From an uncultured Gemmatimonadota bacterium (GTDB lineage: Bacteria; Gemmatimonadota; Gemmatimonadetes; Longimicrobiales; Longimicrobiaceae), in assembly GCA_902805735.1 (NCBI GenBank), contig CADCTW010000159.1:1-43309 (forward strand): DNA of 43,309 nucleotides, written 5' to 3'. Below, one piece after another: positions 2,911 through 41,798 of this stretch. The translations under genes and the position numbers were made by a program. The notes beneath the pieces are model-generated. The model saw only the letters and a list, made by a program, of their open reading frames with translations, did not search any database and was not told the DNA's origin. How positions within the stretch are numbered: position 1 is the stretch's first letter; the number at the start of each line of letters is the position of its first letter.

Positions 2911-2937
2911 CTCACACGGAGACACAGAGGCACAGAG
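2911..2937. repeat. CACAGAG repeat, single arm (copy a)
   Basis: One 27-base copy of the window-wide repeat (consensus start CTCACACAGAGACACAGAGG; here CTCACACGGAG...). It fills the 40-base gap between the convergent 3' ends of bluB-cobT and infA. No opposing arm is present. Confidence 0.85.
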
Positions 2938-2942
2938 GAGGA

Positions 2943-3161
2943 CTACTTGTGCCGGTAGGTGATCCGCCCGCGGGAAAGGTCGTACGGGGACATGCTGAGG
3001 GTGACGCGGTCTCCTTCCAGCACGCGGATCTTGTTCTTGGACATGCGGCCGGCGGCGTAGGCCAGCACCTGGTGGCCGTTCTCCAGCTTCACGCGGTAGT
3101 TGCGGTCGGGGAGCACTTCGGTGACCACTCCTTCCACCTCGAACCCTTCCTGCTTCGCCAT
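2943..3161 (-). CDS. infA: Translation initiation factor IF-1
   Basis: The 72-residue protein is exactly the normal IF-1 length and is a single S1-like OB-fold domain. It begins [19 protein letters not shown] and carries family features such as [19 protein letters not shown] near residues 23-41, [23 protein letters not shown] and the terminal ITYRHK. IF-1 binds the 30S A site with IF-2 and IF-3 during initiation. In many bacteria infA sits in the spc ribosomal operon; here it stands alone, convergent to the cobalamin fusion gene, as is common for dispersed infA copies. The call is firm. Confidence 0.98.
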
Positions 3162-3321
3162 TCAGCCTCCGATGGATGCGTTCGCCGGGCCCGATAAGCG
3201 TCGGCGCGCGGAGGCACCTTCCCCCGCGCGCCGACGCCTGGCCGTGCCGGGCCCCGGCGGGCCCGCACGCGTTTTCGGGGAATATAGCGCGCGCCCGCCG
3301 GGAAACAAGCGCGGCGCCCGC

Positions 3322-3486
3322 CTACGTTCCGGCGGGAACCGGCGCGGGGGTGGCCTGGCGCACGCGCACGCTGCCGTCGCTGCTCAGCAGGCTCATCAGC
3401 GCGACCCCCAGCAGCACCAGCGCGACCGCCCCGATCACCCACGGCCACACGTTGCTCCCCGCCCGCTCCACGTCGATCTCGGCCAT
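3322..3486 (-). CDS. 54-residue single-helix membrane protein
   Basis: This small ORF begins MAEIDVERAGSNVWPWVIGA and has one strongly hydrophobic segment at about residues 13-35 (WPWVIGAVALVLLGVALMSLL), followed by a short polar tail rich in Ala and Pro. A good ribosome-binding site (GGAGGAAACC directly before ATG) supports it as a real gene. It lies upstream of infA on the same strand, separated by about 160 bases. No family is recognised. The short acidic N-terminus before the helix and the basic residues after it do not settle orientation. Confidence 0.7.
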   Translation of the reverse strand: MAEIDVERAGSNVWPWVIGAVALVLLGVALMSLLSSDGSVRVRQATPAPVPAGT

Positions 3487-3577
3487 GGTTTCCTCCGCTG
3501 TTGCGGCGTTCCCGCGACTCTCCCAACCCGGCCGGAGCGTGCAATCTCCGCGCCCGAGGGTTAGACTCAACTGCTGT

Positions 3578-3604
3578 CTCACACAGAGGCACAGAGACAC
3601 AGAG
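3578..3604. repeat. CACAGAG repeat, single arm (copy b)
   Basis: A 27-base arm whose internal order is slightly permuted (ACACAGAGGCACAGAGACAC). Unlike most copies it lies 5' of a gene, ending eight bases before the glycosyltransferase ATG at 3613, so its AGAGAGAAG tail may form part of the translation start region. Confidence 0.8.
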
Positions 3605-3612
3605 AGAAGCGA

Positions 3613-4767: not shown

Positions 4768-4783
4768 CGCGGTGCGACGGCTA

Positions 4784-4981
4784 GGGCCCTCACCCCCCCG
4801 ACCCCCGCTCTCCCGATAACGGGAGAGGGGGGCGCATCTTCCGTGTCCGCGCGATGGTCGGCGGCGTCGCGCCTGCAGTTGCGTGAACTGCGGCCCTCGA
4901 GGTCCGTGGGCGCGGCTCGATGGCCGGAGTGCGCCCCCCTCTCCCGTTATCGGGAGAGGGGGGTCGGGGGGGTGAGGGCCC
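4784..4981. repeat. 198-bp element with about 52-bp terminal inverted repeats (copy 1)
   Basis: The left end reads GGGCCCTCACCCCCCCGACC and continues through the palindrome CTCTCCCGATAACGGGAGAG to GGGGCGCA. The right end is the reverse complement over about 52 bases, with one obvious mismatch. Only about 95 bp lie between the arms and no ORF is credible. A diverged, longer relative is at 9520-9768. The structure suggests a MITE-like non-autonomous element or a large REP/BIME-type repeat. Confidence 0.8.
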
Positions 4982-8795: not shown

Positions 8796-8801
8796 AGACT
8801 G

Positions 8802-8869
8802 GGCTCACACAGAGACACAGAGGCACAGAGATCACTTCATCTCTGTGCCTCTGTGTCTCTGTGTGAGCC
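8802..8869. terminator. Perfect 31-bp hairpin, CACAGAG family (copy c)
   Basis: 8802-8832 and 8839-8869 are exact reverse complements around the loop CACTTC. The hairpin sits six bases after the GNAT-like stop and abuts the stop of the convergent HTH gene, so it could terminate transcription from both sides. There is no T-run. Confidence 0.75.
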
Positions 8870-9519: not shown

Positions 9520-9768
9520 GGGCCCTCACCCCCCCGACCCCCTCTCCCGATAACAGGAGAGGCTGCGCCTCTCGTTATCGAGAGCGGGGGCGCATCTTCA
9601 GTGTCGGCGCGTCGGTCCGTTCCGTCGCGTCCGTCGCCCGGCGGCTCCTACCAGGCCGGCGCAGAGTTTCTGCGATGCCGAGGCCCAGCAGGTCCCCACA
9701 GGCGCACCGCCGGGTGGAAATCGCCCCCTCTCCCGTTATCGGGAGAGGGGGTCGGGGGGTGAGGGCCC
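9520..9768. repeat. 249-bp element with long terminal inverted repeats (copy 2)
   Basis: Same family as 4784-4981. Both ends carry GGGCCCTCACCCCCCCGACC (one C shorter in the right arm) leading into CTCTCCCGATAAC-GGAGAG. The left part also holds an extra inverted segment (GAGGCTGCGCCTCTCGTTATCGAGAGC) followed by GGGGCGCATCTTCAGTGTC, which matches copy 1 at GGGGCGCATCTTCCGTGTC. The interior differs from copy 1, as expected for old non-autonomous elements. Confidence 0.75.
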
Positions 9769-9805: not shown

Positions 9806-10447
9806 TCAACGCCCTTCCTCCCCCACCTGCATCCCGTCGCGCATGAACAGGATGCGGTCGCCCAGGCGCTCGGCCTCGGCCCGGTCGTGGGTGACGAAGA
9901 CGAAGGGGATGCGCCACTCGGCGTGCGCGGCCAGCACCTCGTCCTGGGCGATGCGGCGGGCCGTCTCGTCGAGGGAGGAGAAGGGCTCGTCGAGGAGGAG
10001 GACCTCGGGCTCGGCCATGAGGGCGCGGGCCAGGGCCACCCGCTGCGTTTCGCCGCCGGAGAGCTCGCTGGGGTAGCGGGAGGCCAGGTGGGCGACGTGG
10101 AAGGAGTCCAGGAGGCGCGGAAGGCGCGCGCGCGCCTCGGCCGAGCGCGCCCCGAAGAGCACGTTGCCGTCTACGGTGAGGTGGGGGAAGAGGGCGGAGT
10201 CCTGGAAGACCAGGCCGCAGCGGCGCTCGCGCGGCGGCACCCACACCCGCGGCTCGCGCGACACCAGCACGCGCCCGCCCAGGCGGATCTCCCCGTCGTC
10301 GGGGCGGTCCAGGCCGGCCACCAGGCGCAGCGTCATGGACTTCCCCGCGCCGGAGGGGCCGAAGAGGACGAGCACCTCGCCGCGCACCCGGAAGTCCACG
10401 TCCAGGGTGAAGCCAGGGAGCCGGCGCGCCGCGCGGACGTCCAGCAC
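9806..10447 (-). CDS. modC: Molybdate ABC transporter ATP-binding protein, short form
   Basis: The 213-residue ABC ATPase has Walker A GPSGAGKSMTLR near 34, a Q-loop in CGLVFQDSALFPHLTV, the signature LSGGETQRVALARAL near 130, Walker B VLLLDEPFSSLD and the switch His in FVFVTHDRAEAE. GTG at 10447 is chosen as start because it lies three bases past the modB stop behind a G-rich stretch; no ATG is available nearby. ModC proteins often carry a C-terminal Mop/TOBE molybdate-binding domain, but this one ends after the nucleotide-binding domain. It energises molybdate (or tungstate) uptake with ModB and ModA encoded immediately upstream. Confidence 0.88.
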   Translation of the reverse strand: MLDVRAARRLPGFTLDVDFRVRGEVLVLFGPSGAGKSMTLRLVAGLDRPDDGEIRLGGRVLVSREPRVWVPPRERRCGLVFQDSALFPHLTVDGNVLFGARSAEARARLPRLLDSFHVAHLASRYPSELSGGETQRVALARALMAEPEVLLLDEPFSSLDETARRIAQDEVLAAHAEWRIPFVFVTHDRAEAERLGDRILFMRDGMQVGEEGR

Positions 10448-10449
10448 CG

Positions 10450-11136
10450 CTACCGCCCCCCCGTTCGCTGCCAGCGCGGGGTGCGCCGGCGGGTCCACAC
10501 GTTCAGCCCCACCACCAGCGCCATGCTCAACGCGCTGATCCCCAGCGCGTAGATCCCCGCCGTGCGCAGGTCGCCCGCGTCGGCCAGGAAGTAGATGGCG
10601 AGCGGCACCGTGGTCGTTTCGCCCGGGATGTTGCCCGCCACCATGGCCGTGGCGCCGAACTCGCCCAGCGAGCGCGCGAAGGCCAGCGCCATCCCCGCGA
10701 TCACGCCGGGCCAGGCCAGGGGCAGGGTGACGGCCAGGAAGACGCGCGCCTCCCCCGCGCCCAGGGTGCGCGCGGCGTCTTCCAGGCGCGGATCGACGGA
10801 CTGGAAGGCGGCCTTGGCGCTCTGGTACATCAGCGGGAAGGCGACCACGGCGGAGGCGATGATGGCGGCGTGGATGGTGAACACCATGCGCACGCCGAAC
10901 GCGCTCTCCAGGAATCGCCCCACGGGCCCGTTGCGCCCCAGCAGCACCAGGAGCGCGAAGCCGGTCACCACCGGGGGAAGCACCAGGGGGAGGAGGAAGA
11001 GCCCGTCCACCACGTCGCGCCCGGGGAAGTGGCGGCGCGCCGTCCAGCGCGCGGCCAGCGTTCCCAGCACGAAGACGATGGCGAGCGCGGAGAGCGCCAC
11101 CCGCAGCGACAGCCACACCGGCGTCCAGTCGAACAC
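10450..11136 (-). CDS. modB: Molybdate ABC transporter permease
   Basis: This 228-residue inner-membrane permease has about five predicted helices (around residues 10-30, 45-67, 85-107, 130-155 and 195-218). The EAA-type cytoplasmic loop (EDAARTLGAGEARVFLAVTLP near 119-139) docks ModC. FARSLGEFGATAMVAGNIPGE near 155-175 is a strong ModB/CysT-type signature. It starts three bases after the modA stop and ends three bases before the modC start, giving a compact modABC operon. Substrate is molybdate or possibly tungstate, which sequence alone does not separate. Confidence 0.93.
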   Translation of the reverse strand: MFDWTPVWLSLRVALSALAIVFVLGTLAARWTARRHFPGRDVVDGLFLLPLVLPPVVTGFALLVLLGRNGPVGRFLESAFGVRMVFTIHAAIIASAVVAFPLMYQSAKAAFQSVDPRLEDAARTLGAGEARVFLAVTLPLAWPGVIAGMALAFARSLGEFGATAMVAGNIPGETTTVPLAIYFLADAGDLRTAGIYALGISALSMALVVGLNVWTRRRTPRWQRTGGR

Positions 11137-11910: not shown

Positions 11911-11964
11911 GACAGAGGCACGGAGATGAAGTCATCTCTGTGCCTCTGTGCCTCTGTGTGAGCC
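11911..11964. terminator. Imperfect CACAGAG hairpin (copy d)
   Basis: A short left arm (ACAGAGGCACGGAGATGA) faces a longer right arm (TCATCTCTGTGCCTCTGT...GTGTGAGCCC) around a loop of a few bases. It lies between the DUF4344-like gene stop and the modA start on the minus strand and may terminate the former. Confidence 0.6.
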
Positions 11965-11972: not shown

Positions 11973-12788
11973 TCAGTCCTTCAGGTACGGCCCCAGCAGG
12001 CGGTCCCAGCTCCGGGACACGTGCGCGTACTCCTCTTCGCACCCCTCGGCCCGCTCGCCGGGGAGGGTGCCGTCGCTCACCCACTGCGCGTAGCCCTCGG
12101 GGTCCTGCCCGTACACCAGGCAGAGGACGTTGTAGAAGCGCTGCGATCCCAGCGCGTGCTCGTCCGCGAAGTCCAGGCTGTCCAGCTCGTCGTCGTCGGT
12201 GGCCAGCCCCGCGGCGCCGTTCACCGCCGCCTCGCTCCCCTCGTCCGAGCCGTCCACCAGCATCACGGCGGCGAGCTGGTCCACCGCGTCCTCCTCGCGC
12301 CCGGCGATGGGGATGTCCAGCACGTCCACCAGCGCGTGCCCCACCTCGTGAAGCGTGGTGAAGAGGAGCGCGTCGCTCACCGCCTGCGCGCCCTCCTCGC
12401 CGCCGTCCGCCGCCAGCGCGTCGTCCAGCTCCTGCACCAGCTCGTAGCACAGGGATACGGAGCGAGTCTCGGGGTGGTAGTACGCGTTGGGCTCGCCGCA
12501 GCGGTCGAAGCCGATGGTCACGTCGTGCGGAAGGGCGATCCACCCGTTGAGCCACTCCGCCACGTCTTCCAGGAAGCGCGCCTCGCGGAAGTCGTCCTGC
12601 CACCGCGCGTACGTGGAGTCGTCCACGGCGTGGTAGGCCACGCGGAACTTCCCCGCCATCGCGGGCTTCGCGGGCTCGGCGCGCAGGGGGCTCACGGGTA
12701 CGGCGGGTACCTGCGCGGCGGGAAGGTCGCACGAAGCGAGCGCCAGGGCGGCGCCGAGCGCGAGCAGGGCGGAGAGCGGCGAGGGCAT
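11973..12788 (-). CDS. DUF4344-like putative metallopeptidase lipoprotein
   Basis: The 271-residue protein starts with a lipoprotein signal (MPSPLSALLALGAALALASC). It carries a zinc-type motif H147-EVG-H151 in TTLHEVGHALVDVLDIPI, followed about 14 residues later by EEDAVDQLAAVML, whose Glu/Asp residues could complete the metal site. This fits the DUF4344 family of putative metallopeptidases. The segment before it (WLNGWIALPHDVTIGFDRCG, then YYHPETRSVSLCYEL) also agrees, with two Cys that may pair outside the cytoplasm. ATG 12788 is preferred over the longer frame to 12869 because the signal sequence starts there. Substrate is unknown. Confidence 0.75.
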   Translation of the reverse strand: MPSPLSALLALGAALALASCDLPAAQVPAVPVSPLRAEPAKPAMAGKFRVAYHAVDDSTYARWQDDFREARFLEDVAEWLNGWIALPHDVTIGFDRCGEPNAYYHPETRSVSLCYELVQELDDALAADGGEEGAQAVSDALLFTTLHEVGHALVDVLDIPIAGREEDAVDQLAAVMLVDGSDEGSEAAVNGAAGLATDDDELDSLDFADEHALGSQRFYNVLCLVYGQDPEGYAQWVSDGTLPGERAEGCEEEYAHVSRSWDRLLGPYLKD

Positions 12789-12876
12789 GCGGGCCGGCGG
12801 CGGGACAGAGCGGGAGTGTGGTGCGGCTACAAAGGTCGGTACAGCCGGGCGCGTTGTCCAGTCCTTCAACCGATTG

Positions 12877-12905
12877 GCTCACACAGAGACACAGAGGCAC
12901 AGAGA
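12877..12905. repeat. CACAGAG repeat, single arm (copy e)
   Basis: A 29-base arm (GGCTCACACAGAGACACAGA...) in the divergent region between the DUF4344-like and subtilase genes, one of two copies not at a 3' end. No opposing arm is seen. Confidence 0.85.
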
Positions 12906-14904: not shown

Positions 14905-14974
14905 GGGCTCACACAGAGACACAGAGGCACAGAGACGACTTCGTCTCTGTGCCTCTGTGTCTCTGTGTGAGCCC
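14905..14974. terminator. Perfect 34-bp hairpin, CACAGAG family (copy f)
   Basis: 14905-14938 and 14941-14974 are exact reverse complements with a two-base gap (CT). It lies between the convergent subtilase and unknown-lipoprotein genes and is the longest perfect stem in the window. Confidence 0.78.
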
Positions 14975-18037: not shown

Positions 18038-18076
18038 ACCCGCTCCGGGTTGAACGCGCCCGGTGTCGCATGCGCC

Positions 18077-18275: not shown

Positions 18276-18282
18276 GGGCTGA

Positions 18283-18382: not shown

Positions 18383-18502
18383 TTTATCCCCTCGTGGGGT
18401 ACGGCACGGCCTGTCAGGTCGCGCACACCGGATCGCGCAAGACGGAGCCCCCGCCCGCGCTCGGTGCGTGGGAGGGGGCTCGATGGGGGATGAACGGAAG
18501 GG

Positions 18503-22701: not shown

Positions 22702-22725
22702 CGTGTCTCTGTGCCTCCGTGTGAG
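22702..22725. repeat. CACAGAG repeat, single degenerate arm (copy g)
   Basis: CGTGTCTCTGTGCCTCCGTG then TGAG, reverse orientation, starting six bases after the sbcC-like stop and before trpE. No partner arm. Confidence 0.75.
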
Positions 22726-31215: not shown

Positions 31216-33201
31216 ATGGCAACTCCTCCCAACGTTCCCAACGAGCGCCGCAAAGGGAACAACGACCGGCGCACCACGCGCGGCGGGTTCGACCCGCGCC
31301 GCTCCCGCTTCGGCCTGGGGCCGCTGCTCCTTTTCCTGGTGGCGCTGCTGGCGCTGAACGTGGTGTTCAGCGGCCGCGGCAGCACCCGGCTGGAGTACAG
31401 CGAGCTCAAGAACCGCATCCGCCAGGGGCAGGTGGCCCGCGCCACCCTGGCCGCCACCACCATCACCGCCGTGCCGCGCGACTCCGTGGGCCCCAAGGGG
31501 CGCGTGGTGTGGCAGGCCGAGCGCTCGGCCGGCGAAGACGAGACGCTGATCCCCGCGCTGGACCAGGCGGGGGTGCGCTACGACTTCGAGCAGCCCTCGC
31601 GGTGGACGGGGCTGGTGATGCTCTTCCTCCCCATCCTGGTGCTGGTGGGGCTCTTCACCTTCTTCACGCGGCGCATGAACCCCACGCAGGGGGTGCTCAC
31701 CGTGGGGAAGAGCCGCGCCCGCATCGTGGGCGAGGAGGGCACGGGCGTCACCTTCGAAGACGTGGCGGGGGTGGACGAGGCGAAGCAGGAGACCTACGAG
31801 GTCGTCGAGTTCCTGAAGCACCCGGAGAAGTTCGCCAAGCTGGGCGCCAAGATCCCCAAGGGCGTGCTGCTGGTGGGCCCCCCGGGAACGGGGAAGACGC
31901 TGCTGGCGCGCGCGGTGGCCGGCGAGGCGGGGGTCACCTTCTTCTCCATCAGCGGCGCCGAGTTCGTGGAGATGTTCGTGGGCGTGGGCGCGGCTCGGGT
32001 GCGCGATCTGTTCGCGCAGGCCAAGGCGCAGTCGCCCTGCATCATCTTCATCGACGAGCTGGACGCGCTGGGCAAGGCGCGCGGCCCCGGCGGGGTGCTG
32101 GGCGGCAACGACGAGCGCGAGCAGACGCTCAACCAGCTCCTGGTGGAGATGGACGGCTTCGACCCGCGCATGGCCGTCATCATCATGGCCGCCACCAACC
32201 GCCCCGAGATCCTGGACCCGGCGCTGCTGCGCCCCGGCCGCTTCGACCGGCAGATCCTGGTGGACCGCCCCGACCTCAACGGCCGGCTGGACATCCTGCG
32301 CATCCACGCCAAGGACGTGCAGCTGGAGCCGGACGTGAACCTGGAGAAGATCGCCCGCCGCACCCCCGGCTTCGTGGGCGCGGACCTGGCGAACCTCCTC
32401 AACGAGGCGGCGCTCCTGGCCGCGCGGCGCGACCGGGCGGCCGTGTCGCTCAAGGAGATCGACGACGCGGTGGACCGCATCATCGCGGGGCTGGAGAAGA
32501 AGAACCGGCTGATCAACGAGAAGGAGCGCACCATCGTGGCCTACCACGAGGCCGGCCACGCCATCGTGGCCGAGCGGGTGCCCACGGCGGACCCGGTGCA
32601 CAAGATCTCCATCATCCCCCGCGGCGTGGCGGCGCTGGGGTACACGCAGCAGCTCCCCACGGAAGACCGCTACCTGCTCACCAAGCAGGAGCTGATGGAC
32701 CGCATCGCCGTGCTGCTGGGCGGGCGCGTGGCCGAGGAGATCGTCTTCAACGAGATCTCCACGGGCGCGGGGAACGACCTGGAGCGGGTGACGGAGCTGG
32801 CGCGCAGCATGGTGATGGAGTACGGGATGAGCCGCGAGCTGGGCCCGGTGAACCTTTCCGGCCCCCGCCGCAACCAGTTCCTGCAGGGCTCCGAAGGGGG
32901 CGCCGCGCCGCGCTCGTACTCCGAGGAGACCGCCCGCGCCATCGACGCGGAGATCCGCGGCCTGATCGACGGGACGTACGAGCGGGTGCGCCGCATCCTC
33001 ACGCAGGATCGCGACGTGCTGGAGGTGCTGTCGCAGCGCCTGCTGGAGGTGGAGGTGGTGGACGAGGCGGACCTGCGGCGCATCATGGGGCTGCCGCCGC
33101 GCACCCACGAGCCCTCCGAAGACCGCGTGGTGGCCCCGCCGCCGCCCAAGGGCGGGATGATCGACCCCGAGGGCCGCGCCGCTTCGGAAGCGGCGGACTG
33201 A
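31216..33201 (+). CDS. ftsH: ATP-dependent zinc metalloprotease FtsH
   Basis: The 661-residue AAA+ membrane protease has TM1 near 34-51, a small extracytoplasmic domain, TM2 near 130-150, Walker A GPPGTGKT near 221-228, Walker [11 protein letters not shown] near 276-285, the SRH region [20 protein letters not shown] near 325-344 and the zinc site H444-EAG-H448, with a third ligand Asp expected in [13 protein letters not shown]. It degrades unneeded or damaged membrane and cytosolic proteins. ATG 31216 is chosen because the upstream frame is Arg-rich and unlike FtsH; no clear ribosome-binding site is seen. It diverges from the plug-like lipoprotein gene across 260 bases in which no promoter was recognised. 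Confidence 0.97.
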
Positions 33202-33218
33202 CCTAACCAGGAGGAACG

Positions 33219-33389
33219 GTGTCCAAGGACCCACGCTACAGCGACAAGAGCCCCCACACGTCCGACGAGCAGAAGGGTGCTCCGGCCCCGGAGCGGCCCA
33301 CCAACACGGACGAAGATGCGGGGATGAGCAACCAGGAGGGCCGCGGGCCCTCGCAGGCCGAGGGCGAGCGGAAAGAGGACGGCGACTGA
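33219..33389 (+). CDS. 56-residue hydrophilic, probably disordered protein
   Basis: A GTG start with a near-perfect AGGAGG site (33209-33214) opens 56 codons. The product begins MSKDPRYSDKSPHTSDEQKG and consists almost wholly of polar and charged residues plus Pro and Gly, with no predicted helix or hydrophobic core. It begins 17 bases after the ftsH stop on the same strand, so co-transcription is likely. Its stop is two bases before a CACAGAG hairpin. No family is recognised; small hydrophilic proteins of this type are sometimes stress-related. Confidence 0.6.
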   Translation: MSKDPRYSDKSPHTSDEQKGAPAPERPTNTDEDAGMSNQEGRGPSQAEGERKEDGD

Positions 33390-33391
33390 TT

Positions 33392-33457
33392 GGCTCACAC
33401 AGAGACACAGAGGCACAGAGAAAGAAGATCTTCTCTGTGCCTCCGTGTCTTGGCTCA
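33392..33457. terminator. CACAGAG hairpin (copy h)
   Basis: GGCTCACACAGAGACACAGA... pairs with ...CTGTGCCTCCGTGTCTTGGC with a few mismatches, and the tip contains its own palindrome GAAGATCTTC. It lies between the convergent 56-residue peptide and propeller-like lipoprotein genes, overlapping the latter's stop. Confidence 0.7.
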
Positions 33458-35548
33458 GGGGAGGTCCACCACGTAGACGGTGGTGGGCCCGTCCGGGCTG
33501 TCGGCGCGCGCATCCACGGCGATCATCCGCCGCGGCCCGGCGAAGAGGATCCGCCCCTCCACGCTGCCGGGGAGCGTAATGCGCTCGACGTACTCACCGT
33601 CGGAGACTCTCAGCTTCGCGATTCCTCTCACCAGCCCCACGTACAGGTGCGACCCATCGGGAGAGAGGCCCGTGGTGTAGCTGAATGACGTTCCGCTGAC
33701 GATAGGGAAGCTCCGCACCCTGCCCCGGTCCGCGTCGAACACGTCGTACCCCCAGGCGAACCGGTCGCCCGAGGGTGTGGAGGACCACGACCCGTAATGG
33801 CGGCCCGCCGGGAAGCACGAGCCGATCTCGTTGGTGCGGGAGTCGTACACGATGACGCAGCGGGGGTCGACCCTCTCCAGGAAGATGCGGCCGCGGTCGG
33901 CCGAGCGGGCCGCCACGATGGTGGCTCCGGCCGCTTCCGTATCGGCGCGCAACCGCTGGCCAGTCCCCGAGCTCGTCATCTCCACCACTTGCTTCGCCCA
34001 GGGCACTCCCGACACCAGCACCTTGCCGTTGGCGGCTACCCGCACGCCCCACACGTGGATCTTCTCGCCGTTCACGAGGATCGGCACCTTGAGGGGCGCG
34101 GCATCCGGCCGCGCAAGGTCCACCACCGCGACCGCGGTTTCGCTGGGGAGCGCCGCGAGCAGTGTGTCACCCCCGCGGGTCAGCTCCACCGCCAGCGGGC
34201 TGTGACGCACGGTGCCCAGGTTGATGCTGGTGGATGTCATGGTCGCGAGCGACAGCACTTCCACCCGCCCCGTGTACGGGAAGGCGAGGTAGAGCAGGCC
34301 GCGCGCTTCGTCCAGCACCATGTCCGTGGCCCGCGTGGCGAAGGTGGCCGTCCTCACCGGGTACTCGGGCGCGGGGACGATCCGGAAGCTGTCCGCGGGC
34401 GCGCTGGCCGTTCCGCTGTACATGTGCTCGCCGTTCACCACCTGCACCGAGAATCGCGTCGCGCCCACCCACTCCGGCTTCACGGGGATGCTGACGTCGA
34501 TGTTGCCGGTGGTGAAGGGCACCGGCACCGAGTCGCGGACGCTGACCGCCCCGCCCAGCGTGTACACCAGCCACCCCGGCCCCCGCGACTCCATGACGTC
34601 GCCGCGCACCTTCATCGTGTCTCCCGCGGCGAAGTTCCCCACCAGCCGGTTGGAGTCCATCCCCGAAGGCACCGAGGTGAGGAAGTAGGCGTAGCGTAGT
34701 ACCGGCGGCTTGTTGCTTACCACCTGCACCTGGGTGGCCGAGGTGGCGACGCCGGGCTGCAAGAACCCGTCGAGGGCGTAGGCCTGCACCCGGATCGGCT
34801 GCCCGATCTGCGCGTCCGCCGGCACCGCGATCTCCACCCTGCCGCGCACGGTGCCTCCGACGGTACCGGTCACCGCATGCCGGTCCAGCATCCGCGCGCT
34901 GAACGCACCCGAGACGAGGATGCCGCTCTCCCACACCCCGCTCGCCGACTCCGCCTCGTAGGTGATCGTCAGGCTGCGCCCCGGGATGATCGCGACGGCG
35001 GCGGTGTCGTCGAACAGGGGGGTGACCCGTACGTTGCGCACCACCGGCGCCGGCACCCCGCCCGGGGGCGGCGTGGGACCGCAGGTGAAGGTATGGCTAG
35101 CGATACCCGTGGCGCCGGTCGCCTCCTCCAGGTAATCCATCTCCAGCGTGAGCTTGAAAGGCGCGCCCGCGTAGAAGGTCCAATGCGAGTTCCGGGTGCT
35201 GCCGCTGGCGATGACGGAGGTCCCCCACCCCTTCACGATCTCCTGCTCGGAGATCGGCGTGGTGTCGCTGGGCACCGCGCGAGTCAGGCCAAAGTGCCAG
35301 AGCATCCTGCCGCCCTGCCACCGCACCACGTTCCCCGTTTTTCCGGAGGCCACGGCGGCCAGAGGGATCTCGCATTGCGCCCGCAGGCTCCCGTTGGATG
35401 CCGCGTACGTCCGCATCTCGCCCGGGGTGCCGGTGAGGGCGATCTGGGTCTTGGGAACGGGAGGGCCCGGCGGATCGGAGGTGGTCGTGGAGTCGCAGCC
35501 GCCCAGCGCCAGCAGGGCCGCCAGGCATGTATGCCGGATGAGGCGCAT
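33455..35548 (-). CDS. Large lipoprotein with Ig-like and beta-propeller-like regions
   Basis: The 697-residue protein begins MRLIRHTCLAALLALGGCDS, with lipobox ALGGC. After a low-complexity Thr/Pro linker come beta-sandwich-like segments at about 200-390 (for example SLTITYEAESASGVWESGIL). From about 405 to the end there are repeated blade-like units (MVLDEARGLLYLAFPYTGRV; LAVELTRGGDTLLAALPSET; TGLSPDGSHLYVGLVRGIAK), as in YVTN/NHL-type propellers. It probably sits on the outer membrane or periplasmic face and binds a partner or polymer. ATG 35548 is chosen for the signal peptide; the frame runs upstream without one. No specific family is recognised. Confidence 0.78.
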   Translation of the reverse strand: MRLIRHTCLAALLALGGCDSTTTSDPPGPPVPKTQIALTGTPGEMRTYAASNGSLRAQCEIPLAAVASGKTGNVVRWQGGRMLWHFGLTRAVPSDTTPISEQEIVKGWGTSVIASGSTRNSHWTFYAGAPFKLTLEMDYLEEATGATGIASHTFTCGPTPPPGGVPAPVVRNVRVTPLFDDTAAVAIIPGRSLTITYEAESASGVWESGILVSGAFSARMLDRHAVTGTVGGTVRGRVEIAVPADAQIGQPIRVQAYALDGFLQPGVATSATQVQVVSNKPPVLRYAYFLTSVPSGMDSNRLVGNFAAGDTMKVRGDVMESRGPGWLVYTLGGAVSVRDSVPVPFTTGNIDVSIPVKPEWVGATRFSVQVVNGEHMYSGTASAPADSFRIVPAPEYPVRTATFATRATDMVLDEARGLLYLAFPYTGRVEVLSLATMTSTSINLGTVRHSPLAVELTRGGDTLLAALPSETAVAVVDLARPDAAPLKVPILVNGEKIHVWGVRVAANGKVLVSGVPWAKQVVEMTSSGTGQRLRADTEAAGATIVAARSADRGRIFLERVDPRCVIVYDSRTNEIGSCFPAGRHYGSWSSTPSGDRFAWGYDVFDADRGRVRSFPIVSGTSFSYTTGLSPDGSHLYVGLVRGIAKLRVSDGEYVERITLPGSVEGRILFAGPRRMIAVDARADSPDGPTTVYVVDLP

Positions 35549-35649: not shown

Positions 35650-35680
35650 TTTCTCTGTGCCTCTGTGTCTCTGTGTGAGC
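35650..35680. repeat. CACAGAG repeat, single arm (copy i)
   Basis: A 31-base reverse-oriented arm (TTTCTCTGTGCCTCTGTGTC...) abutting the waaA stop codon. It has no opposing arm. Confidence 0.85.
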
Positions 35681-36919
35681 CTAAAGAAGGCGCTGGATGA
35701 TCTCTGCCCCGCGCTCGGCCGCGCCCCGGTTGTCCTGGACGTAGCGGCGGGCGGCGGCGCCGTCGGGAGGGGTGCGCAGGGCGGCGGCGAGGGTGGCCGC
35801 GTCGTGGACCTCCGCGGCGGCGCCCAGCGCGAGCAGCTCGCCGGCTTCGCGGGCGTTGGCGTGGCGCGGGCCAAAGAGCACCGGAGCACCGAACGCGGCG
35901 GGCTCCAGCACGGAGTGGAGCCCCGCCGTGCCGAACCCGCCGCCCACGTACGCCACGTCCGCCAGCGCGTACAGGTCGCCCAGGACGCCCGTGCGGTCCA
36001 CCAGCGTCACTCGCTGTACGGGGGCGCCCGCCTCGATGGCCGAGAGGCGCGCGTGCGGCAGGCCGTGCGCGGCTAGCGCGGCTTCGGCGCGGGCCAGGTG
36101 GTGCGGCGTGGGCTCGTGCGGCACGAGGACGACGCGCATTCCGAGCCCCGCGACGGCGGGGACCAGGTGCTCCTCGTCGGCGGGCCAGGTGGAGCCGGCG
36201 ACGAGGGTTGGTTGGGTGGTGTCCGCGAAGGGGGCCAGGATGGCGCGGTCGGCCCGCTGGGCGCGCTCCCACACCTGGTCGAAGCGCGCGTCGCCCATCA
36301 CCACGCGCCGCGCGGAGGCCACGCCCAGCGCCGCGAACCGTTCCGCGTCGGCGGGGGAGATGGCGGCGACGAGGTCCAGGCGCGCGTAGGCGGGGGCCAG
36401 CACCGCGCGCGCGACGCCGCCCAGCCGGCTGGACGAGGCGGGGAGCGTGGCGCTGAGGAGCGCCAGCCGCACGCCGCGCGACCGCGCCTCGCGCGTGAGC
36501 ACCGGCCACACGTCCGTCTTGGAGAACGCGAACACCGCGGGGCGCAGCAGATCCAGGGCGCGCCCCACCTCGCCCGCCAGGTCGAAGGGAAGGTAGTCCG
36601 TGAAGTCCGCGGCCACGCTGCGCGCGAACGCCTCGGCCGACGGCGAGAAGTAGGTGTAGGCCACCTGGAGATCGGGCCGGCGCGCACGGAGCGCATCCAC
36701 CACCGCCCGCGCCTGCAGCCCCTCGCCCACGCTCGGCGCGTGGAACCAGACGAGCGGCCGCGTGGGATCGCGCTCCGCCGCCGCCCACGCCGCCATGCGC
36801 TCCAGCACCCCGCGCCGCCCGCGGACCGCGCGCGCCAGCTTCCCCTCGCCCCGCGCCGCCAGGGGAAGCAGCGGGCGCGCGGCGGAGAGCGCGAGCGTGT
36901 ACAGGGTTTCCGCGATCAT
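35681..36919 (-). CDS. waaA: 3-deoxy-D-manno-octulosonic acid transferase (Kdo transferase)
   Basis: The 412-residue GT-B enzyme transfers Kdo from CMP-Kdo to lipid A precursor at the inner membrane. The N-terminal hydrophobic segment (MIAETLYTLALSAARPLLPL) is the membrane anchor. VWFHAPSVGEGLQARAVVDAL near 57-77 contains the conserved S-x-GE site, with YTYFSPSAE near 89-97. The C-terminal domain has LVAGSTWPADEEHLV near 237-251, VLVPHEPTPHH near 262-272 and VAYVGGGFGTAGLHSVLEPA near 328-347. The usual ETElWPn motif reads SKTDVWPVL here, so the first Glu is replaced. ATG 36919 is chosen; further in-frame starts fall in repeat-derived sequence. It implies an LPS outer membrane. Confidence 0.92.
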   Translation of the reverse strand: MIAETLYTLALSAARPLLPLAARGEGKLARAVRGRRGVLERMAAWAAAERDPTRPLVWFHAPSVGEGLQARAVVDALRARRPDLQVAYTYFSPSAEAFARSVAADFTDYLPFDLAGEVGRALDLLRPAVFAFSKTDVWPVLTREARSRGVRLALLSATLPASSSRLGGVARAVLAPAYARLDLVAAISPADAERFAALGVASARRVVMGDARFDQVWERAQRADRAILAPFADTTQPTLVAGSTWPADEEHLVPAVAGLGMRVVLVPHEPTPHHLARAEAALAAHGLPHARLSAIEAGAPVQRVTLVDRTGVLGDLYALADVAYVGGGFGTAGLHSVLEPAAFGAPVLFGPRHANAREAGELLALGAAAEVHDAATLAAALRTPPDGAAARRYVQDNRGAAERGAEIIQRLL

Positions 36920-36937: not shown

Positions 36938-37002
36938 CTCACACAGAGACACAGAGGCACAGAGAAGAACTTCTCCTCTGTGCCTCTGTGCCTCTGTGTG
37001 AG
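36938..37002. terminator. CACAGAG hairpin (copy j)
   Basis: Left arm CTCACACAGAGACACAGAGG... and right arm ...CTCTGTGCCTCTGTGTGAG pair over most of their length around GAAGAACTTC. It lies between the DJ-1/PfpI gene stop and the waaA start, both on the minus strand. Confidence 0.72.
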
Positions 37003-37003: not shown

Positions 37004-37780
37004 TTAAAGCTGTACCCCGTCGCCCACGATGACGACGCGCTCCACTTCCACGGGCTCCGGGGGCAGGGGCATGGGGGTGGTGGCGGCCAGGGGCGCGGGG
37101 GCCGCCTCCTCGTAGCCGTCGCCGCGGGCCTGGAGGTACTGCCAGACGGCGTAGCCCGCGGCGGCGGCGGCGATGCCGGCGGCCAGCATCCCCAGGCCGC
37201 CCCCGCGCTCCTCCTCCACTTCCACCACCACCGGGGCGTGCTCGGCGAAGAGGTCGGCGGCGGCCTCGTTGAACTCCGGCAGGTCGTGCGGGCCGCGGCT
37301 GGATACCCAGTTGCGGTCGCGCACCACCGACTCGTCGCTCCACACGCCGCCCGCGTTCAGCACGTCGTGCTTGATCCCCGGCCACGAGGTGAGCCGCCGG
37401 CCCGACACCATCCCGGCCGAGATCAGCACCCAGGGGGCATGGCAGATCATGGCGATGGGCTTCCCCTGCGCGTTGAAGGCGGAGACGAAGTCCAGCACGC
37501 GGTCGCTCTGGCGCAGCGTGTCGGGGTTGATCAGCCCGCCGGGGAGGAGGAGGGCGTCGTAGTCGTCGACCCCCACCTCGTCCAGCGTGTAGTCCACCCG
37601 CACCTTCTTCCCCGGGTACATGTGGTTCACGCCGCGGATGCGCCCCTCGTGCAGCGAGACGACGTCCACCCGGGCGCCGCGGTCCTCCAGCGCCTCCACC
37701 GGCGAGGTAAGCTCCACCTGCTCGAAACCATCGGCCGCGAGCACCGCTACGCGCAGTCCTTCCAAGTTGTCGCTTCTCAT
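37004..37780 (-). CDS. DJ-1/PfpI family protein with C-terminal membrane helix
   Basis: The 258-residue protein has an N-terminal DJ-1/PfpI domain (about 1-185): E20 in AADGFEQVEL, DALLLPGGLINPD near 75-87 and the nucleophile elbow C113-H114 in IAMICHAPWVL. It resembles PfpI/YhbO-type glyoxalase or deglycase-like proteins. An acidic stretch (VVVEVEEE) and a Gly/Ala-rich hydrophobic helix (about 194-217, GLGMLAAGIAAAAAGYAVWQ) follow, with a Pro-rich tail, which is unusual since family members are normally soluble. A perfect AGGAGG site precedes ATG 37780. It may be a stress protein held at the membrane. The function is inferred from the family; whether the helix is membrane-spanning is uncertain. 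Confidence 0.85.
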   Translation of the reverse strand: MRSDNLEGLRVAVLAADGFEQVELTSPVEALEDRGARVDVVSLHEGRIRGVNHMYPGKKVRVDYTLDEVGVDDYDALLLPGGLINPDTLRQSDRVLDFVSAFNAQGKPIAMICHAPWVLISAGMVSGRRLTSWPGIKHDVLNAGGVWSDESVVRDRNWVSSRGPHDLPEFNEAAADLFAEHAPVVVEVEEERGGGLGMLAAGIAAAAAGYAVWQYLQARGDGYEEAAPAPLAATTPMPLPPEPVEVERVVIVGDGVQL

Positions 37781-38107: not shown

Positions 38108-39040
38108 ATGCCTCGATCCCGCTGGACGCTGATGCTCGTTCCGCACGACAACGAGCGCGTCCTTTCCTGGCAGGTGACCGGGAAGCACATCCGCGCCGCC
38201 GTCTCGGCCGCCGTCGCAATCGCACTCCTCCTCGCCATCTTTGGAGTCGGCTTCTTCGTGAAGCAGAGCCGCTCCGTGCGCGACGCCCAGCTTCGCCGGG
38301 AGAACCGGCTGCTGGCCGCCGAGGTGGACCAGATGCGCGAGCAGATGGCCGAGCTCAACCAGAGCATCGACCAGCTCGCCCTCAAGGACGAGGAGTACCG
38401 CACCATCGCGGGGCTCCCCGAGCTGGACGAGGACGTGCGCAAGGTGGGGATCGGCGGGCCGGGCGCGACGCTGGCGGACGCGGCGCTGTTGCACCTCAAC
38501 CCCGGCGTGGGGAAGAAGCTGGAGAGCGCCGAAGACAACCTGGGGACTCTGGCCCGCCGGGCGCGGCTCCTGCAGGCGTCGCTGGACGAGGCGCTGGGCG
38601 CGCTGCGCAGCAACAACGAGCGGATGGCGCGCACCCCTTCCATCGCGCCCGCCAACGGCCCCCTGTCGTCGCTCTTCTCCAACGCCCGCGCGCACCCGGT
38701 GCTCCGCATCAGCCGGCCCCACAAGGGGATCGACATCGCCGCGCGCGTGGGCGAGCCGATCCTGGCGCCGGGGAAGGGGCGGGTCCGGTTCTCCGGCAAC
38801 CGCGCCAACGGCTACGGCAACACGGTGGAGATCGACCACGGCTTCGGCTACATCACCCGCTTCGCGCACGCGTCGCGGCTGCGGGTGAGGACCGGCGACG
38901 TGGTGCAGCGCGGCGACGTGATCGCGGACGTGGGGGCCACGGGGCTGGTGAGCGGGCCGCACCTGCACTACGAGGTGGAGCAGAACGGGCGCCAGGTGGA
39001 CCCGCTCAACTTCATCGTCGCGGACGCGATCCCGGATTGA
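38108..39040 (+). CDS. M23 family murein endopeptidase with coiled coil
   Basis: The 310-residue protein has a membrane helix near 33-52 (AVAIALLLAIFGVGFFVKQS), a coiled coil (about 57-95, RRENRLLAAEVDQMREQMAE) and a C-terminal LytM-type domain. Its zinc residues are in H205-KGI-D209 and HLHYEV (H285 and H287); GYGNTVEIDHGFGYITRFAH completes the domain. This is the layout of envelope regulators or amidases such as MepM-like endopeptidases, which cut peptidoglycan crosslinks or activate partner enzymes. The full metal-ligand set suggests it is active. It has its own promoter and ends before a degenerate repeat. Confidence 0.92.
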   Translation: MPRSRWTLMLVPHDNERVLSWQVTGKHIRAAVSAAVAIALLLAIFGVGFFVKQSRSVRDAQLRRENRLLAAEVDQMREQMAELNQSIDQLALKDEEYRTIAGLPELDEDVRKVGIGGPGATLADAALLHLNPGVGKKLESAEDNLGTLARRARLLQASLDEALGALRSNNERMARTPSIAPANGPLSSLFSNARAHPVLRISRPHKGIDIAARVGEPILAPGKGRVRFSGNRANGYGNTVEIDHGFGYITRFAHASRLRVRTGDVVQRGDVIADVGATGLVSGPHLHYEVEQNGRQVDPLNFIVADAIPD

Positions 39041-39051: not shown

Positions 39052-39105
39052 GGCTCACACAGAGGCACGGAGGCACAGAGAGACGGATTTCTCGGTGCCT
39101 CTCGT
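39052..39105. repeat. CACAGAG repeat, degenerate hairpin (copy k)
   Basis: The left arm is GGCTCACACAGAGGCACGGA... and the right side keeps only part of the opposing arm (TCTCGGTGCCTCTCG). It follows the M23 gene stop by 11 bases and precedes the M16-like pair. Confidence 0.65.
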
Positions 39106-39122
39106 TGCGTTATGATGATTGA

Positions 39123-40280
39123 ATGCTGACGATCCTGATGATGGCGGCGCTGGCGGGGGACACGGTGCCGGCGGTGACGGTGCACCGGCAGCCGGCGCTC
39201 CCCGTGGTGGCGCTGCGCATGGCGCTCCTGGCCGACGATCCCCAGGGGTTCGCGGGGGCGGGGCACCTGATCCAGCACCTGCACCTCCCCGCCATGGAGG
39301 AGCAGGCGGCGCGGGTGGGGGGGCGGGTGCAGGCGCTGCGGACCTCCGATGCGCTGGTGTACACGGTGACGGGGCCGGCGGCGGAGCTGGATTTCCTGGC
39401 CGGTGTGCTGCGGGGCGCGCTGAACGTGCCGCGGCCGGCGCAGCCGCAGCTGCTGATGGCGCTGAACACGCTGGCCGAGGAGCGCGGGGCAGAGCGGGAG
39501 ACGGCGGCGTCGTACGTGCGCGCGGCGTTGCGCCAGGGCGTCTTTCCCGGCGAGCTGCCGGCGGCGGGGACCGCGGCCTCCGCGCGGCGGCTGGAGACGG
39601 CCCCGCTGGAGGCGCTGTGGGGGGAGATGTACTCGCCCGGGCGGCTGGCTGTGGTGGCGGTGGGGGATGTAGGGGCCGAGCAGGTGACGCGGGCGCTGCG
39701 CGGCCTTCCCGCCGCGGCGGGGGAGCGGCTGGCGGAGGCGATGCCGGACACGGCGCCCTCGCTCGCCGCCGACACGCCGCAGGCCACGCGCGCCTGGGTC
39801 GGGTGGGCTGCCTCCGCCCCCGCCGACGACGCGGCTTCGCTCTCCGTGGCCGCGCGGCTGCTAGGGAACCGGCTGCGGCGCGGGATGACGGGGTCCACCG
39901 TGGAGGTGGAGCACTGGTGGACCCATCGCGGGCACGCGCTGGCCATCGTGGTGGCCACTCCGGGCCCGCGGGCGGCGGCGGCGCGCAGGACGGTGTCCGG
40001 GGCGCTGGCGACGACTCTGGGGGCGCTGGACGCGGAGGCGGTGAGGGACGCGGTGGCCGGGGTGCGGCGCGACCTCCTCTTCTTCTCCCGCACGCCGGAG
40101 CGCATGGCGGAGGTGCTGGGCGCCTTCGCGGACCGCGGCGGCGAGCCCGACGCGGCGCAGCGCTTCTTCGCGGCGCTGGACGGGGTGACGGAGGCGTCGG
40201 TGCGGGCGGCGCTGGAGGGGGTGCGCGCGAGCGAGCCCGTCACCGTGGGGATCGCCCCGCAGCGGCTGGTGCCCAACTGA
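39123..40280 (+). CDS. M16-like protein with altered zinc motif (first of pair)
   Basis: The 385-residue protein has an M16 (pitrilysin/processing-peptidase) fold judged from FAGAGHLIQHLHLP near 43-56, GGRVQALRTSDALVYTVTGP near 66-85, LDFLAGVLRGALNVP near 89-103 and an internal YSPGRLAVVAVGDV segment. The expected HxxEH site reads H48-LIQ-H52, with the catalytic Glu changed to Gln, so hydrolysis is unlikely. The N-terminus (MLTILMMAALAG) may be a short export signal. Its stop overlaps the next gene's ATG. It may be a non-catalytic subunit or a chaperone-like protein. Confidence 0.75.
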   Translation: MLTILMMAALAGDTVPAVTVHRQPALPVVALRMALLADDPQGFAGAGHLIQHLHLPAMEEQAARVGGRVQALRTSDALVYTVTGPAAELDFLAGVLRGALNVPRPAQPQLLMALNTLAEERGAERETAASYVRAALRQGVFPGELPAAGTAASARRLETAPLEALWGEMYSPGRLAVVAVGDVGAEQVTRALRGLPAAAGERLAEAMPDTAPSLAADTPQATRAWVGWAASAPADDAASLSVAARLLGNRLRRGMTGSTVEVEHWWTHRGHALAIVVATPGPRAAAARRTVSGALATTLGALDAEAVRDAVAGVRRDLLFFSRTPERMAEVLGAFADRGGEPDAAQRFFAALDGVTEASVRAALEGVRASEPVTVGIAPQRLVPN

Positions 40281-41473
40281 TGCGCGCGCTCGTCTCGACG
40301 CTCGCGGCCGTGCTGGCCTGCGCTCCGCTGGGCGCGCAGGAGCGCTTCCTGGTGCGCTCCGAGCCCGGGAACCCGGTGGTGACGGTGGAGATCCTGCTGG
40401 CCGCGGGGCCCGCGGACGAGCCGGAGGGGGAGGAGGGGGTCGCCTACCTGACGGCGCGCTCGGTGGTGGCGCCGGTGCTTCCCCTGCTGGACTCGCTGGG
40501 GGCGCGGCTGCGGGTGGAAGGACGCAAGGACGCCGTGTCCATGACCATGACGGCCGCGCCCGACGCGTGGGACGAGGCGACGCGCATCCTGCTGGTGGCG
40601 CTCTTTCGCGACCCCGTGAGCGGCGAGGCGGTGGAGCGGCAGCGCACGGCCATCGCGGCCGAGCTGGCGGGGCGCGAGGCGAGCCCGGCCGATGCGCTGG
40701 CCCGCGAGGTGGACGCGGCCGTGTGGGGGCGCGGGCACCCCTGGGGCCGTCCCGCGGTGGGGACCGCCGCGTCGGTGGCGCGGATCACCCCCGCGGCCGT
40801 GGAGATCTTCCTCCGCCGCGCATTCTCGCAGGAGCGCGCGCTGGTGGCCGTGGTGGGCCCCGTGGAGCGTGCGGACGTGGACGCGCGCGTCTCCGCCTTC
40901 CTGGAGCCCGGCCCCCTGCGCGGGGGGGAGGTGCCGCCGCCGCTGCGCGGGGACACGGCGGTGCACACGGAGTACAACGCCATCACGGCGTGGGTGTCCG
41001 CCTCCTACCGCTTCGGCGCCGACGCGGACGCGGAGTCGCTGCGCATGCTGGGGAGCCTGGTGCTGGACCAGGTGGGCTTCGGGCCCACCCGCCGCTCGGT
41101 GTACGACCAGCGCGCGGAGGTGGTGCGCCACGCGGGCGGGGGCGAGCTGCGCATCCACCTGGTGGTGCCCCCGCGCGAGGCGGAGGCGTGGGGGGCGCGC
41201 ATCCGCGAGGCGGTGGCCGCGTACGCGGGCGCGCCGGTGCCCGCCGCCGTGTTCGCCGAGCGGGCGCGGCGCTTCCGCGGGCGGCGCCTGCTGGAGCTGG
41301 ACTCGCCGGAGGCGCGGGCGGACGCCGTGGCGCGCGGGGCGCTGGTGGGGGAGCGGGGAGACCCGTTCGCGGCGGTGCGGGGCGTGACGGCGGAGCGGCT
41401 CCACGCCGCGGCGAGGTCGCTGGAGCCGCCGGTGCTGGTTTACCTGGGTCCCTTTGAGAAAGGCGAAGACTGA
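40280..41473 (+). CDS. M16-like protein lacking the zinc motif (second of pair)
   Basis: The 397-residue protein starts with a signal peptide (MRALVSTLAAVLACAPLGAQ). It has M16 C-half-like features: AFSQERALVAVVGPVERADV near 183-202, YNAITAWVSASYRFGADADA near 233-252 and RRSVYDQRAEVV near 272. Where HxxEH should be, EEGVAYLTARSVV gives Y56-LTA-R60, so all three catalytic and metal-binding positions are lost. The start overlaps the first member's stop as ATGA and its own stop overlaps yggT. In known M16 heterodimers one subunit keeps HxxEH; here neither does. It is possibly a structural or binding partner. Confidence 0.75.
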   Translation: MRALVSTLAAVLACAPLGAQERFLVRSEPGNPVVTVEILLAAGPADEPEGEEGVAYLTARSVVAPVLPLLDSLGARLRVEGRKDAVSMTMTAAPDAWDEATRILLVALFRDPVSGEAVERQRTAIAAELAGREASPADALAREVDAAVWGRGHPWGRPAVGTAASVARITPAAVEIFLRRAFSQERALVAVVGPVERADVDARVSAFLEPGPLRGGEVPPPLRGDTAVHTEYNAITAWVSASYRFGADADAESLRMLGSLVLDQVGFGPTRRSVYDQRAEVVRHAGGGELRIHLVVPPREAEAWGARIREAVAAYAGAPVPAAVFAERARRFRGRRLLELDSPEARADAVARGALVGERGDPFAAVRGVTAERLHAAARSLEPPVLVYLGPFEKGED

Positions 41474-41730
41474 TGCTGGCCTTCCAGATCCTGGTCTACT
41501 CGATCCGCCTCTTCCAGATCCTCATCATCGTGAGGATCGTCCTGTCGTACGTGGTCAGCCCCGTATCGCGCAACCCGCTGGTGGAGATGGTGCGCACCGC
41601 CACCGACCCCATCCTGGGCCCCATCCGCTCCGTGATGCCGGACACGGGGATGTTCGACCTGTCTCCCATGGTCGCCATCCTGGTCCTGCAGTTCATCGAG
41701 TACCTGCTGATCGGCATCGCGAACGGCTGA
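41473..41730 (+). CDS. yggT: YggT family membrane protein
   Basis: The 85-residue protein has two hydrophobic segments (about residues 5-25 and 65-82) separated by the family-like SPVSRNPLVEMVRTATDPIL GPIRSVMP region, whose NPLVxxxxxxTDPxLxPxR pattern is typical of single-unit YggT proteins. YggT proteins have roles linked to osmotic stress and cell division in some bacteria, but the mechanism is not settled. The ATG overlaps the upstream M16-like stop, so it is co-translated, and a perfect-arm repeat hairpin follows its stop by two bases. Confidence 0.88.
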   Translation: MLAFQILVYSIRLFQILIIVRIVLSYVVSPVSRNPLVEMVRTATDPILGPIRSVMPDTGMFDLSPMVAILVLQFIEYLLIGIANG

Positions 41731-41732
41731 TA

Positions 41733-41798
41733 CTCACACAGAGACACAGAGGCACAGAGAAAAGCATCTTTCTCTGTGCCTCTGTGTCTCTGTGTGAG
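41733..41798. terminator. CACAGAG hairpin (copy l)
   Basis: Left arm CTCACACAGAGACACAGAGG...GAGAAA pairs with TTTCTC...CTCTGTGTGAG around a short AGCATC-type tip. It lies between the convergent yggT and LemA genes, two bases from each stop codon, and is close to perfect. Confidence 0.78.

What the first reader, a model, noticed from the sequence alone, without database searches (positions are those of the whole stretch)
2911..41798. One CACAGAG repeat family marks gene ends across the window
At least twelve copies of a 24-34 base arm (core CACAGAGACACAGAGGCACA) occur at 2911, 3578, 8802, 11911, 12877, 14905, 22702, 33392, 35650, 36938, 39052 and 41733. Ten lie directly 3' of a gene. All five convergent junctions hold a copy, and at four of them (8802, 14905, 33392, 41733) it is a long hairpin starting 2-12 bases after a stop codon. 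Only copies at 3578 and 12877 are 5' to genes. Classical T-run terminators are almost absent, so this family may have taken over termination or mRNA 3'-end protection. Spread as a mobile palindrome is the alternative.
Basis: partly seen in the sequence, partly recalled or inferred. Interest (0 to 1): 0.72.

Follow-up and report, generated by a model that had tools for sequence, protein, structure and literature searches.

The report
Repeat hairpin that replaced gene terminators
In this bacterium one repeated DNA hairpin, present in hundreds of copies, sits immediately after stop codons where related species usually have other hairpins, so a spreading repeat appears to have become a common gene-end signal.

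Summary
The repeat is real and genome-wide: 1365 + 1332 exact CACAGAGRCACAGAG in the 5.79 Mb draft, against 0-136 per strand in nine same-genus genomes. In 903 kb I found 195 elements: 81 two-armed hairpins, 37 degenerate hairpins, 77 single arms. Hairpins abut stop codons: 72 of 76 lie within 20 nt (random placement in the same gaps: mean 41.7, maximum 51); three other palindrome families do not. Of 89 convergent junctions, 48 carry one, and the gap is then mostly just the element (32 of 48 are 58-91 nt). At 14 of 17 element-bearing gene ends with orthologues (13 by a stricter reading), relatives have a different strong stem, retained here in 1 of 28 cases. The core stem covaries; loops rarely repeat. 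T-tracts are enriched but weak, and single arms share them. The arm occurs patchily in unrelated bacteria. Best reading: a mobile REPIN-like palindrome now serving as a bidirectional 3'-end stem-loop that displaced older stems. Termination and the moving enzyme are unshown; none of 20 RAYT loci examined has it as immediate flank.

The parts
2911..2937 (+). single arm, between two convergent stops (3' of the gene ending 2902 and of the IF-1-like gene 2943-3161)
3578..3604 (+). single arm in a divergent gap, 5' of the gene at 3613
8801..8869 (.). hairpin filling the gap between convergent stops 8795 and 8869
11912..11964 (.). degenerate hairpin (right arm intact), 3' of the minus-strand gene 11973-12788
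12876..12904 (+). single arm in a divergent gap
14905..14973 (.). hairpin between convergent stops 14892 and 14980
22702..22725 (-). single arm starting 6 nt after the stop (22695) of an SbcC-like gene; missed by the strict arm scan
33391..33450 (.). degenerate hairpin between the ORF ending 33389 (weak call, next to the FtsH-like gene) and the minus-strand gene 33455-35548; relatives G004 and G006 have a CCCCTCCCCC-type stem after ftsH
35652..35680 (-). single arm 3' of the minus-strand gene 35681-36919
36938..37002 (.). hairpin 3' of the minus-strand gene 37004-37780; G004, G005 and G006 have a GCACCCCGCCG stem here
39052..39102 (.). degenerate hairpin 3' of the plus-strand gene 38132-39040; the seven relatives printed carry a GGAGCG/CGCTCC stem here
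41733..41798 (.). hairpin between convergent stops 41730 and 41801; G004, G005 and G006 carry a CGGGGCCGCGTCC-type stem here

Best explanation
CACAGAG is a dispersed repeat built from a roughly 40-nt unit: an A-rich border, GGGCTCA, then three octamers CACAGAGR. Two units tail to tail, separated by a loop of about 10 nt, make a hairpin of about 30 base pairs. The unit spread in this lineage to an estimated 520 good hairpins, 240 degenerate ones and 490 single arms (scaled from the sample). Hairpins just after stop codons work as bidirectional 3'-end stem-loops, either ending transcription with help of a short T-tract or blocking 3' exonucleases. They made the older gene-end stems redundant, and these were lost, so that the space between convergent stop codons is now often just one element. 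Shown by computation: copy numbers, structure, placement, substitution for other stems, covariation of the core. Inferred: that transcripts end there, that spread was by an enzyme acting on the arms, and the order insertion first, loss afterwards.
For: Placement: 72 of 76 hairpins with a neighbouring stop lie within 20 nt of it (two overlap it), and 19 of 20 in gaps with over 100 nt to spare (random 2.0); REP-A 2 of 16 (random 1.9), REP-B 2 of 8 (0.7), CTCTCCCG palindrome 1 of 30 (2.1). Context of 81 hairpins: 36 convergent, 40 tandem, 1 divergent, 4 at sequence edges, 0 inside genes. Tandem hairpins, good and degenerate: 54 nearer the stop, 5 nearer the start. Substitution: another strong stem in 4 of 45 hairpin-bearing convergent gaps against 16 of 34 without an element, Fisher p = 1.7e-4. 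Orthologues: 28 of 41 relative ends have a strong stem not flagged as CACAGAG (shuffles 4.1; 26 if two with loose CACAGAG words are removed); 1 of 28 retained here against 5 of 14 at control ends (Fisher p = 0.011, rows within a junction not independent). Covariation in the core arm: 23 cells against 5.5 (maximum 13 of 1000 shuffles). Stable folds. T enrichment beside the stem. Expansion: 850 pattern matches here against 19, 4, 3, 3 and four zeros in the eight same-genus genomes drawn. The 41733 hairpin has at least seven other places in the genome identical over 65-68 bases, loop included.
Against: No transcript data. The T-tract is weak: 18 of 40 tandem hairpins have at least 4 T in 8 downstream, against 14% of random intergenic 12-mers, and the outer side of single arms, which form no hairpin, has as much (33 of 76), so it may belong to the repeat rather than to termination. 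77 of 195 elements are single arms, 20 of them in divergent gaps. Single arms with a neighbouring stop are also close to it (41 of 47), so closeness to stops is not tied to the hairpin alone. Loops are mostly different (71 distinct of 81) and the outer six positions of the two arms do not covary, which copying of whole hairpins alone does not predict. No transposase with these ends was found. The masked hairpin-bearing gaps are short, so part of the lack of other stems is lack of room (shuffle expectation 0.6 against 3.2). Some relative stems are themselves repeats, and stems differ among relatives at some junctions, so fast turnover is general in this genus.
Confidence: 0.6

Rival explanations
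1. Purely selfish palindrome: it inserts widely, survives only where harmless (gene ends), and does nothing for the host.
For: Patchy distribution and sudden expansion; singles in divergent gaps; nine distinct elements contain a gene's stop.
Against: Three other intergenic palindrome families in the same sample, small in number, are not stop-abutting. Other stems are scarce where the hairpin sits. Core covariation.
Confidence: 0.2
2. Uptake-sequence-like signal for natural transformation, with inverted pairs doubling as terminators as in Neisseria and Haemophilus.
For: Over a thousand copies, single and inverted-pair forms, all 81 arm pairs under 150 nt apart in the +- order, different words in sister species, as described for uptake sequences (PMC1852404, PMC2397512, passages read).
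Against: Only 3 of 195 elements lie inside genes. The conserved unit is 23-27 nt of tandem octamers, not a 9-12-mer. Nine same-genus genomes have few or none. Competence genes were not examined.
Confidence: 0.1
3. Protein-binding or chromosome-structure site whose arms are bound as DNA, with gene ends merely permissive.
For: Arms conserved while loops and borders drift; single arms also conserved.
Against: Does not by itself explain paired arms within 0-20 nt of stops or the scarcity of other stems.
Confidence: 0.1

Closest known systems
REPINs / REP doublets (Pseudomonas fluorescens; PMC3116915, passages read)
   Same: Short extragenic units, single or as inverted doublets forming hairpins, hundreds of copies.
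   Different: Arms here are tandem octamers with no strong palindrome inside one arm; no RAYT examined has it as immediate flank; REP doublets are described there as randomly distributed in extragenic space, this one is stop-abutting.
GTAG- and CGTC-tagged REPs (PMC3733652, passages read)
   Same: Small palindromic repeats in several phyla, sometimes supplying the stop codon of a neighbouring ORF.
   Different: No GTAG or CGTC end in the border logo; stem of about 30 bp instead of 5-13 bp.
Uptake-signal terminators of Neisseria and Pasteurellaceae (PMC1852404, PMC2397512, passages read)
   Same: A repeated motif in inverted pairs used as terminator at a large share of gene ends.
   Different: Longer periodic motif, few copies inside genes, few or none in sister species; uptake role untested.
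E. coli REPs near stop codons (PMC12306157, passages read)
   Same: A share lies within 15 nt of a stop and is said to stall ribosomes.
   Different: 446 of 4072 in that study, 260 of 496 in an earlier one it cites; here 72 of 76 hairpins within 20 nt.

Membership tests
REP/REPIN | short extragenic repeats, single and as inverted doublets, in high copy | tested here: met
REP/REPIN | cognate RAYT gene flanked by the repeat | tested here: not met
   Two Y1_Tnp genes in the 86% complete draft, each immediately flanked by another REP family; the one on C66 does have CACAGAG hairpins just outside its REP pair. Of 24 other same-genus matches, 18 loci were fetched and 0 of 18 has an arm within about 1.5 kb.
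REP/REPIN | imperfect palindrome within one unit and GTAG or CGTC tail | tested here: not met
   border and arm logos; two single arms fold weakly
Intrinsic terminator | strong stem just 3' of the stop | tested here: met
   (degenerate copies weaker)
Intrinsic terminator | T-tract after the stem | tested here: inconclusive
   enriched but weak, 18 of 40 against 14% of random, and shared by single arms
Intrinsic terminator | transcripts end there | not testable with these tools
   no RNA data
Uptake sequence | arm promotes DNA uptake | not testable with these tools
   none
Uptake sequence | a share of copies inside genes | tested here: inconclusive
   3 of 195 inside genes; PMC2397512 says most neisserial copies are intergenic, so this separates poorly
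Integron attC site | integron integrase in the genome | tested here: not met
   TIGR02249: no match over cut-off in any of 10 genus genomes; G007 holds below-cut-off pieces
MITE of a DNA transposon | transposase gene between the same terminal repeats | tested here: inconclusive
   Ten arm-to-arm intervals of 300-3500 nt with genes, all in the own sample; ten enclosed proteins scanned, none a transposase, plus window 33455-35548 without Pfam match; other enclosed genes and 84% of the genome not scanned
Known RNA family | Rfam match | tested here: not met
   0 matches in the window at gathering threshold

The most novel reading that the evidence does not exclude
A broad-host palindromic repeat spreads by colonising the bases just after stop codons and displacing resident terminators, so that a bacterium's transcription-end signals can be swapped wholesale for one selfish family within a genus; sister species carry other periodic-word palindromes that may be doing the same.
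Probability: 0.35. Interest if true: 0.85.

Novelty: new variant of a known kind. Interest (0 to 1): 0.63.

Why it matters
If right, terminators are not only shaped gene by gene but can be replaced genome-wide by a spreading repeat, which makes a parasite-to-signal conversion directly testable by comparing sister species. Terminator predictors built on short GC stems with T-runs might then miss many gene ends in such genomes.

Tried and rejected
RAYT-driven REP: the two own RAYTs have other REPs at their immediate ends, and none of the 18 other same-genus RAYT loci fetched (of 24 matches) carries CACAGAG. Integron attC: no integrase over cut-off. Composite transposon: ten scanned proteins between inverted arms are ordinary or unknown. 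Viral contigs: the full hairpin pattern gives 0, the single 23-mer 25. Plasmids: six records, one place covering most of the query at 69.7% identity, E 0.2 or worse. Literature in the held library: long sequence words of the repeat and of the other words give 0 papers; shorter words with 'palindromic' and 'intergenic' gave 61 papers, 20 seen in the listing, none on such a repeat by title; Gemmatimonadota with 'transcription terminators' 0. No call named the organism; a Gemmatimonadota guess is recall only. Cross-lineage gene-end placement: clear for IMG/VR pairs (18 of 19 within 40 nt, random 13.7, 0 of 1000 reach it), not distinguishable from chance in the Burkholderiales set (14 of 18, random 13.3, 431 of 1000), so I do not claim it as general. 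Outer flanks as remnants of an old terminator stem: no covariation at -6 to -1, so rejected.

Limits. Genes were called with a simple codon-usage finder written here, good for stops, rough for starts. The sample is 902,753 of 5,787,258 bases: the window plus 60 stretches, contigs mostly taken by number, two stretches (L047, L048) chosen for their RAYTs; five short pieces that read only N were dropped (L044, L072, L076, L080, L093) and the overlaps of L091 and L092 trimmed. Ortholog work used only window, L033 and L037 and relatives G004-G006; junction 36938 fell out of the automatic table, probably because its alignment ended too far from the stop, and is shown by hand. The strict arm scan misses weak copies: 4 of the 27 control ends hold weak CACAGAG words in the own sequence, among them 22702. 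The stem threshold (score 24) is arbitrary; one search allows loops of 3-14, of 3-9. One convergent junction can count as two gene ends (among the 17 ends, 41730/41801 and L033 3993/4069 do so). One search drew eight of the nine other same-genus genomes.
Full report
Genome-wide, the 15-mer CACAGAGRCACAGAG occurs 1365 times forward and 1332 times reverse. Nine same-genus genomes have 0-136 per strand; of 61 genomes searched, own included, 13 have any. A two-arm hairpin pattern scores 850 here (overlapping matches counted), against 19, 4, 3 and 3 and four zeros in the eight same-genus genomes drawn; 9 of 395 genomes of the phylum sample have a match.

Anatomy. In 903 kb of own sequence (plus window; 56 of 61 pieces, five read only N) I found 195 elements: 81 two-armed hairpins, 37 degenerate hairpins, 77 single arms. 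Scaled to the genome this is about 519, 237 and 494. The arm is GGCTCA-CACAGAGA-CACAGAGG-CACAGAGA, bordered outside at about -15 by an A-rich tract, which is a T-rich tract when read out of the hairpin. Modal loop length is 10 (45 of 81). In the core the two arms of one hairpin share the same changes more often than shuffled partners do (23 against 5.5, maximum 13 of 1000), while the outer six positions do not covary and 71 of 81 loops are distinct. Yet the hairpin at 41733 has at least seven other places identical over 65-68 bases, loop included, so whole units are copied too. All 81 neighbouring arm pairs under 150 nt apart are in the +- order. Single arms keep the same border but end in a purine run after the third octamer.

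Placement. With 692 called genes, 36 hairpins are convergent, 40 tandem, 1 divergent, 4 at sequence edges and none inside a gene. 72 of the 76 convergent or tandem ones lie within 20 nt of a stop, two of them overlapping it, against a mean of 41.7 and a maximum of 51 when each is placed at random in its own gap; in roomy gaps it is 19 of 20 against 2.0. Three other palindrome families in the same DNA, two of them the REPs of the resident RAYTs, give 2 of 16, 2 of 8 and 1 of 30, random 1.9, 0.7 and 2.1. Single arms with a neighbouring stop are close to it as well (41 of 47), but 20 of 77 sit in divergent gaps. 48 of 89 convergent junctions carry a hairpin or degenerate hairpin, 58 of 361 tandem and 2 of 86 divergent ones. 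Nine distinct elements contain a gene's stop.

Substitution. Where the hairpin fills a convergent gap another strong stem is rare (4 of 45, shuffled 0.6); without any element it is common (16 of 34, shuffled 3.2, Fisher); pooled relatives have 25 of 42, with CACAGAG arms in 3. Convergent gaps with a hairpin have a median of 76.5 nt (n 48, 32 of them 58-91 nt), without element 108.5 (n 38), pooled relatives 173.5 (n 52). At 17 gene ends with an element and an orthologous end in G004, G005 or G006, 14 have a strong stem not flagged as CACAGAG in at least one relative; over all 41 relative ends it is 28, shuffles 4.1, with 3 flagged CACAGAG-like. Two of the 28 contain loose CACAGAG words, which would make it 26 and 13 of 17 (loose words also turn up at two ends after 39040 whose stem is clearly another one). 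Only 1 of the 28 stems is recognisable in the own sequence, against 5 of 14 at control ends (p = 0.011). That one is a CACAGAG-type stem in G005 at a junction (L033 3993/4069) where relatives carry an older variant of the repeat, so some copies are ancestral. A few relative stems are themselves repeats, and stems differ among the relatives at some junctions (for example after L033 13983), so turnover of gene-end stems is fast in this genus in general.

Function. Full hairpins fold very stably, degenerate ones less so. T enrichment next to the stem is real but modest, and single arms share it. I commit to a bidirectional 3'-end stem-loop, terminator or exonuclease barrier, as the likely role, with transcript ends untested.

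Origin. Borders differ by lineage. This patchy spread argues for a mobile or horizontally passed repeat rather than 23 bases invented repeatedly. Sister species carry other 7-8-nt periodic words in intergenic arrays (AGTGCGTG, GGGAATG and others), one with the same AACAGC-like border. No enzyme was found: the RAYTs examined carry other repeats at their immediate ends or at least not this one, although the own RAYT on C66 has CACAGAG hairpins just outside its REP pair.

Against. Single arms, weak T-tracts, variable loops and the absence of an identified transposase all leave room for a selfish or DNA-binding role. The cross-lineage gene-end placement is supported only for the IMG/VR set.

Known kinds. 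It works most like uptake-signal terminators (PMC1852404, PMC2397512) and looks most like REPINs (PMC3116915), but fails the RAYT and tail features tested. I file it as a new variant of a known kind. The six papers opened were seen as passages by term search only.

Noticed in passing
window 18266-18400; L047 about 9940-10520: REP-A palindrome (GGGAAGCCCGCTGAAGCGGGCTCG) occurs in the window and as the inverted pair flanking the own RAYT on C66; its likely cognate repeat.
   Followed up: partly
L048 about 10155-10700: A second own RAYT on C238 is flanked by a different REP (AAAGTCCGCCTTCGCGGACT).
   Followed up: partly
window 4804-4970 and 9537-9759: Another palindrome family, CCCCCTCTCCCG(TTATCG)GGAGAGGGGG, 35 matches in the 903 kb sample, not stop-abutting.
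   Followed up: partly
L111 15766-15900, L112 16540-16700, L141 2821: Sister species carry intergenic periodic-word arrays with other units (AGTGCTA, AGTGCGTG, GGGATGAG, GGGAATG), some as inverted pairs near gene ends.
   Followed up: partly
window 19106-22695: Metallophosphoesterase (SbcD-like) and SbcC-like genes (Pfam); a CACAGAG arm follows the SbcC-like stop after 6 nt. Palindrome cleavage by SbcCD is recalled and might bear on loop variability.
   Followed up: no
window 33201-33389: The FtsH-like ORF stops at 33201, yet DNA similarity to relatives runs on to 33386, as if the tail were in another frame; left as it is.
   Followed up: no
window 18010-18302: About 16-nt tandem repeat CGGGCGTTGGACCCG around the end of the gene ending at 18037.
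   Followed up: no
own sample, e.g. hairpins with loop starting ATAA or ATGA: Nine distinct elements contain the neighbouring gene's stop codon (4 hairpins, 5 degenerate), so some proteins appear to end in residues read from the arm.
   Followed up: partly
L225 (G007 C97 3602-4457): Integron-integrase-like coding pieces in a same-genus genome, one with an in-frame stop, each below the family cut-off.
   Followed up: no
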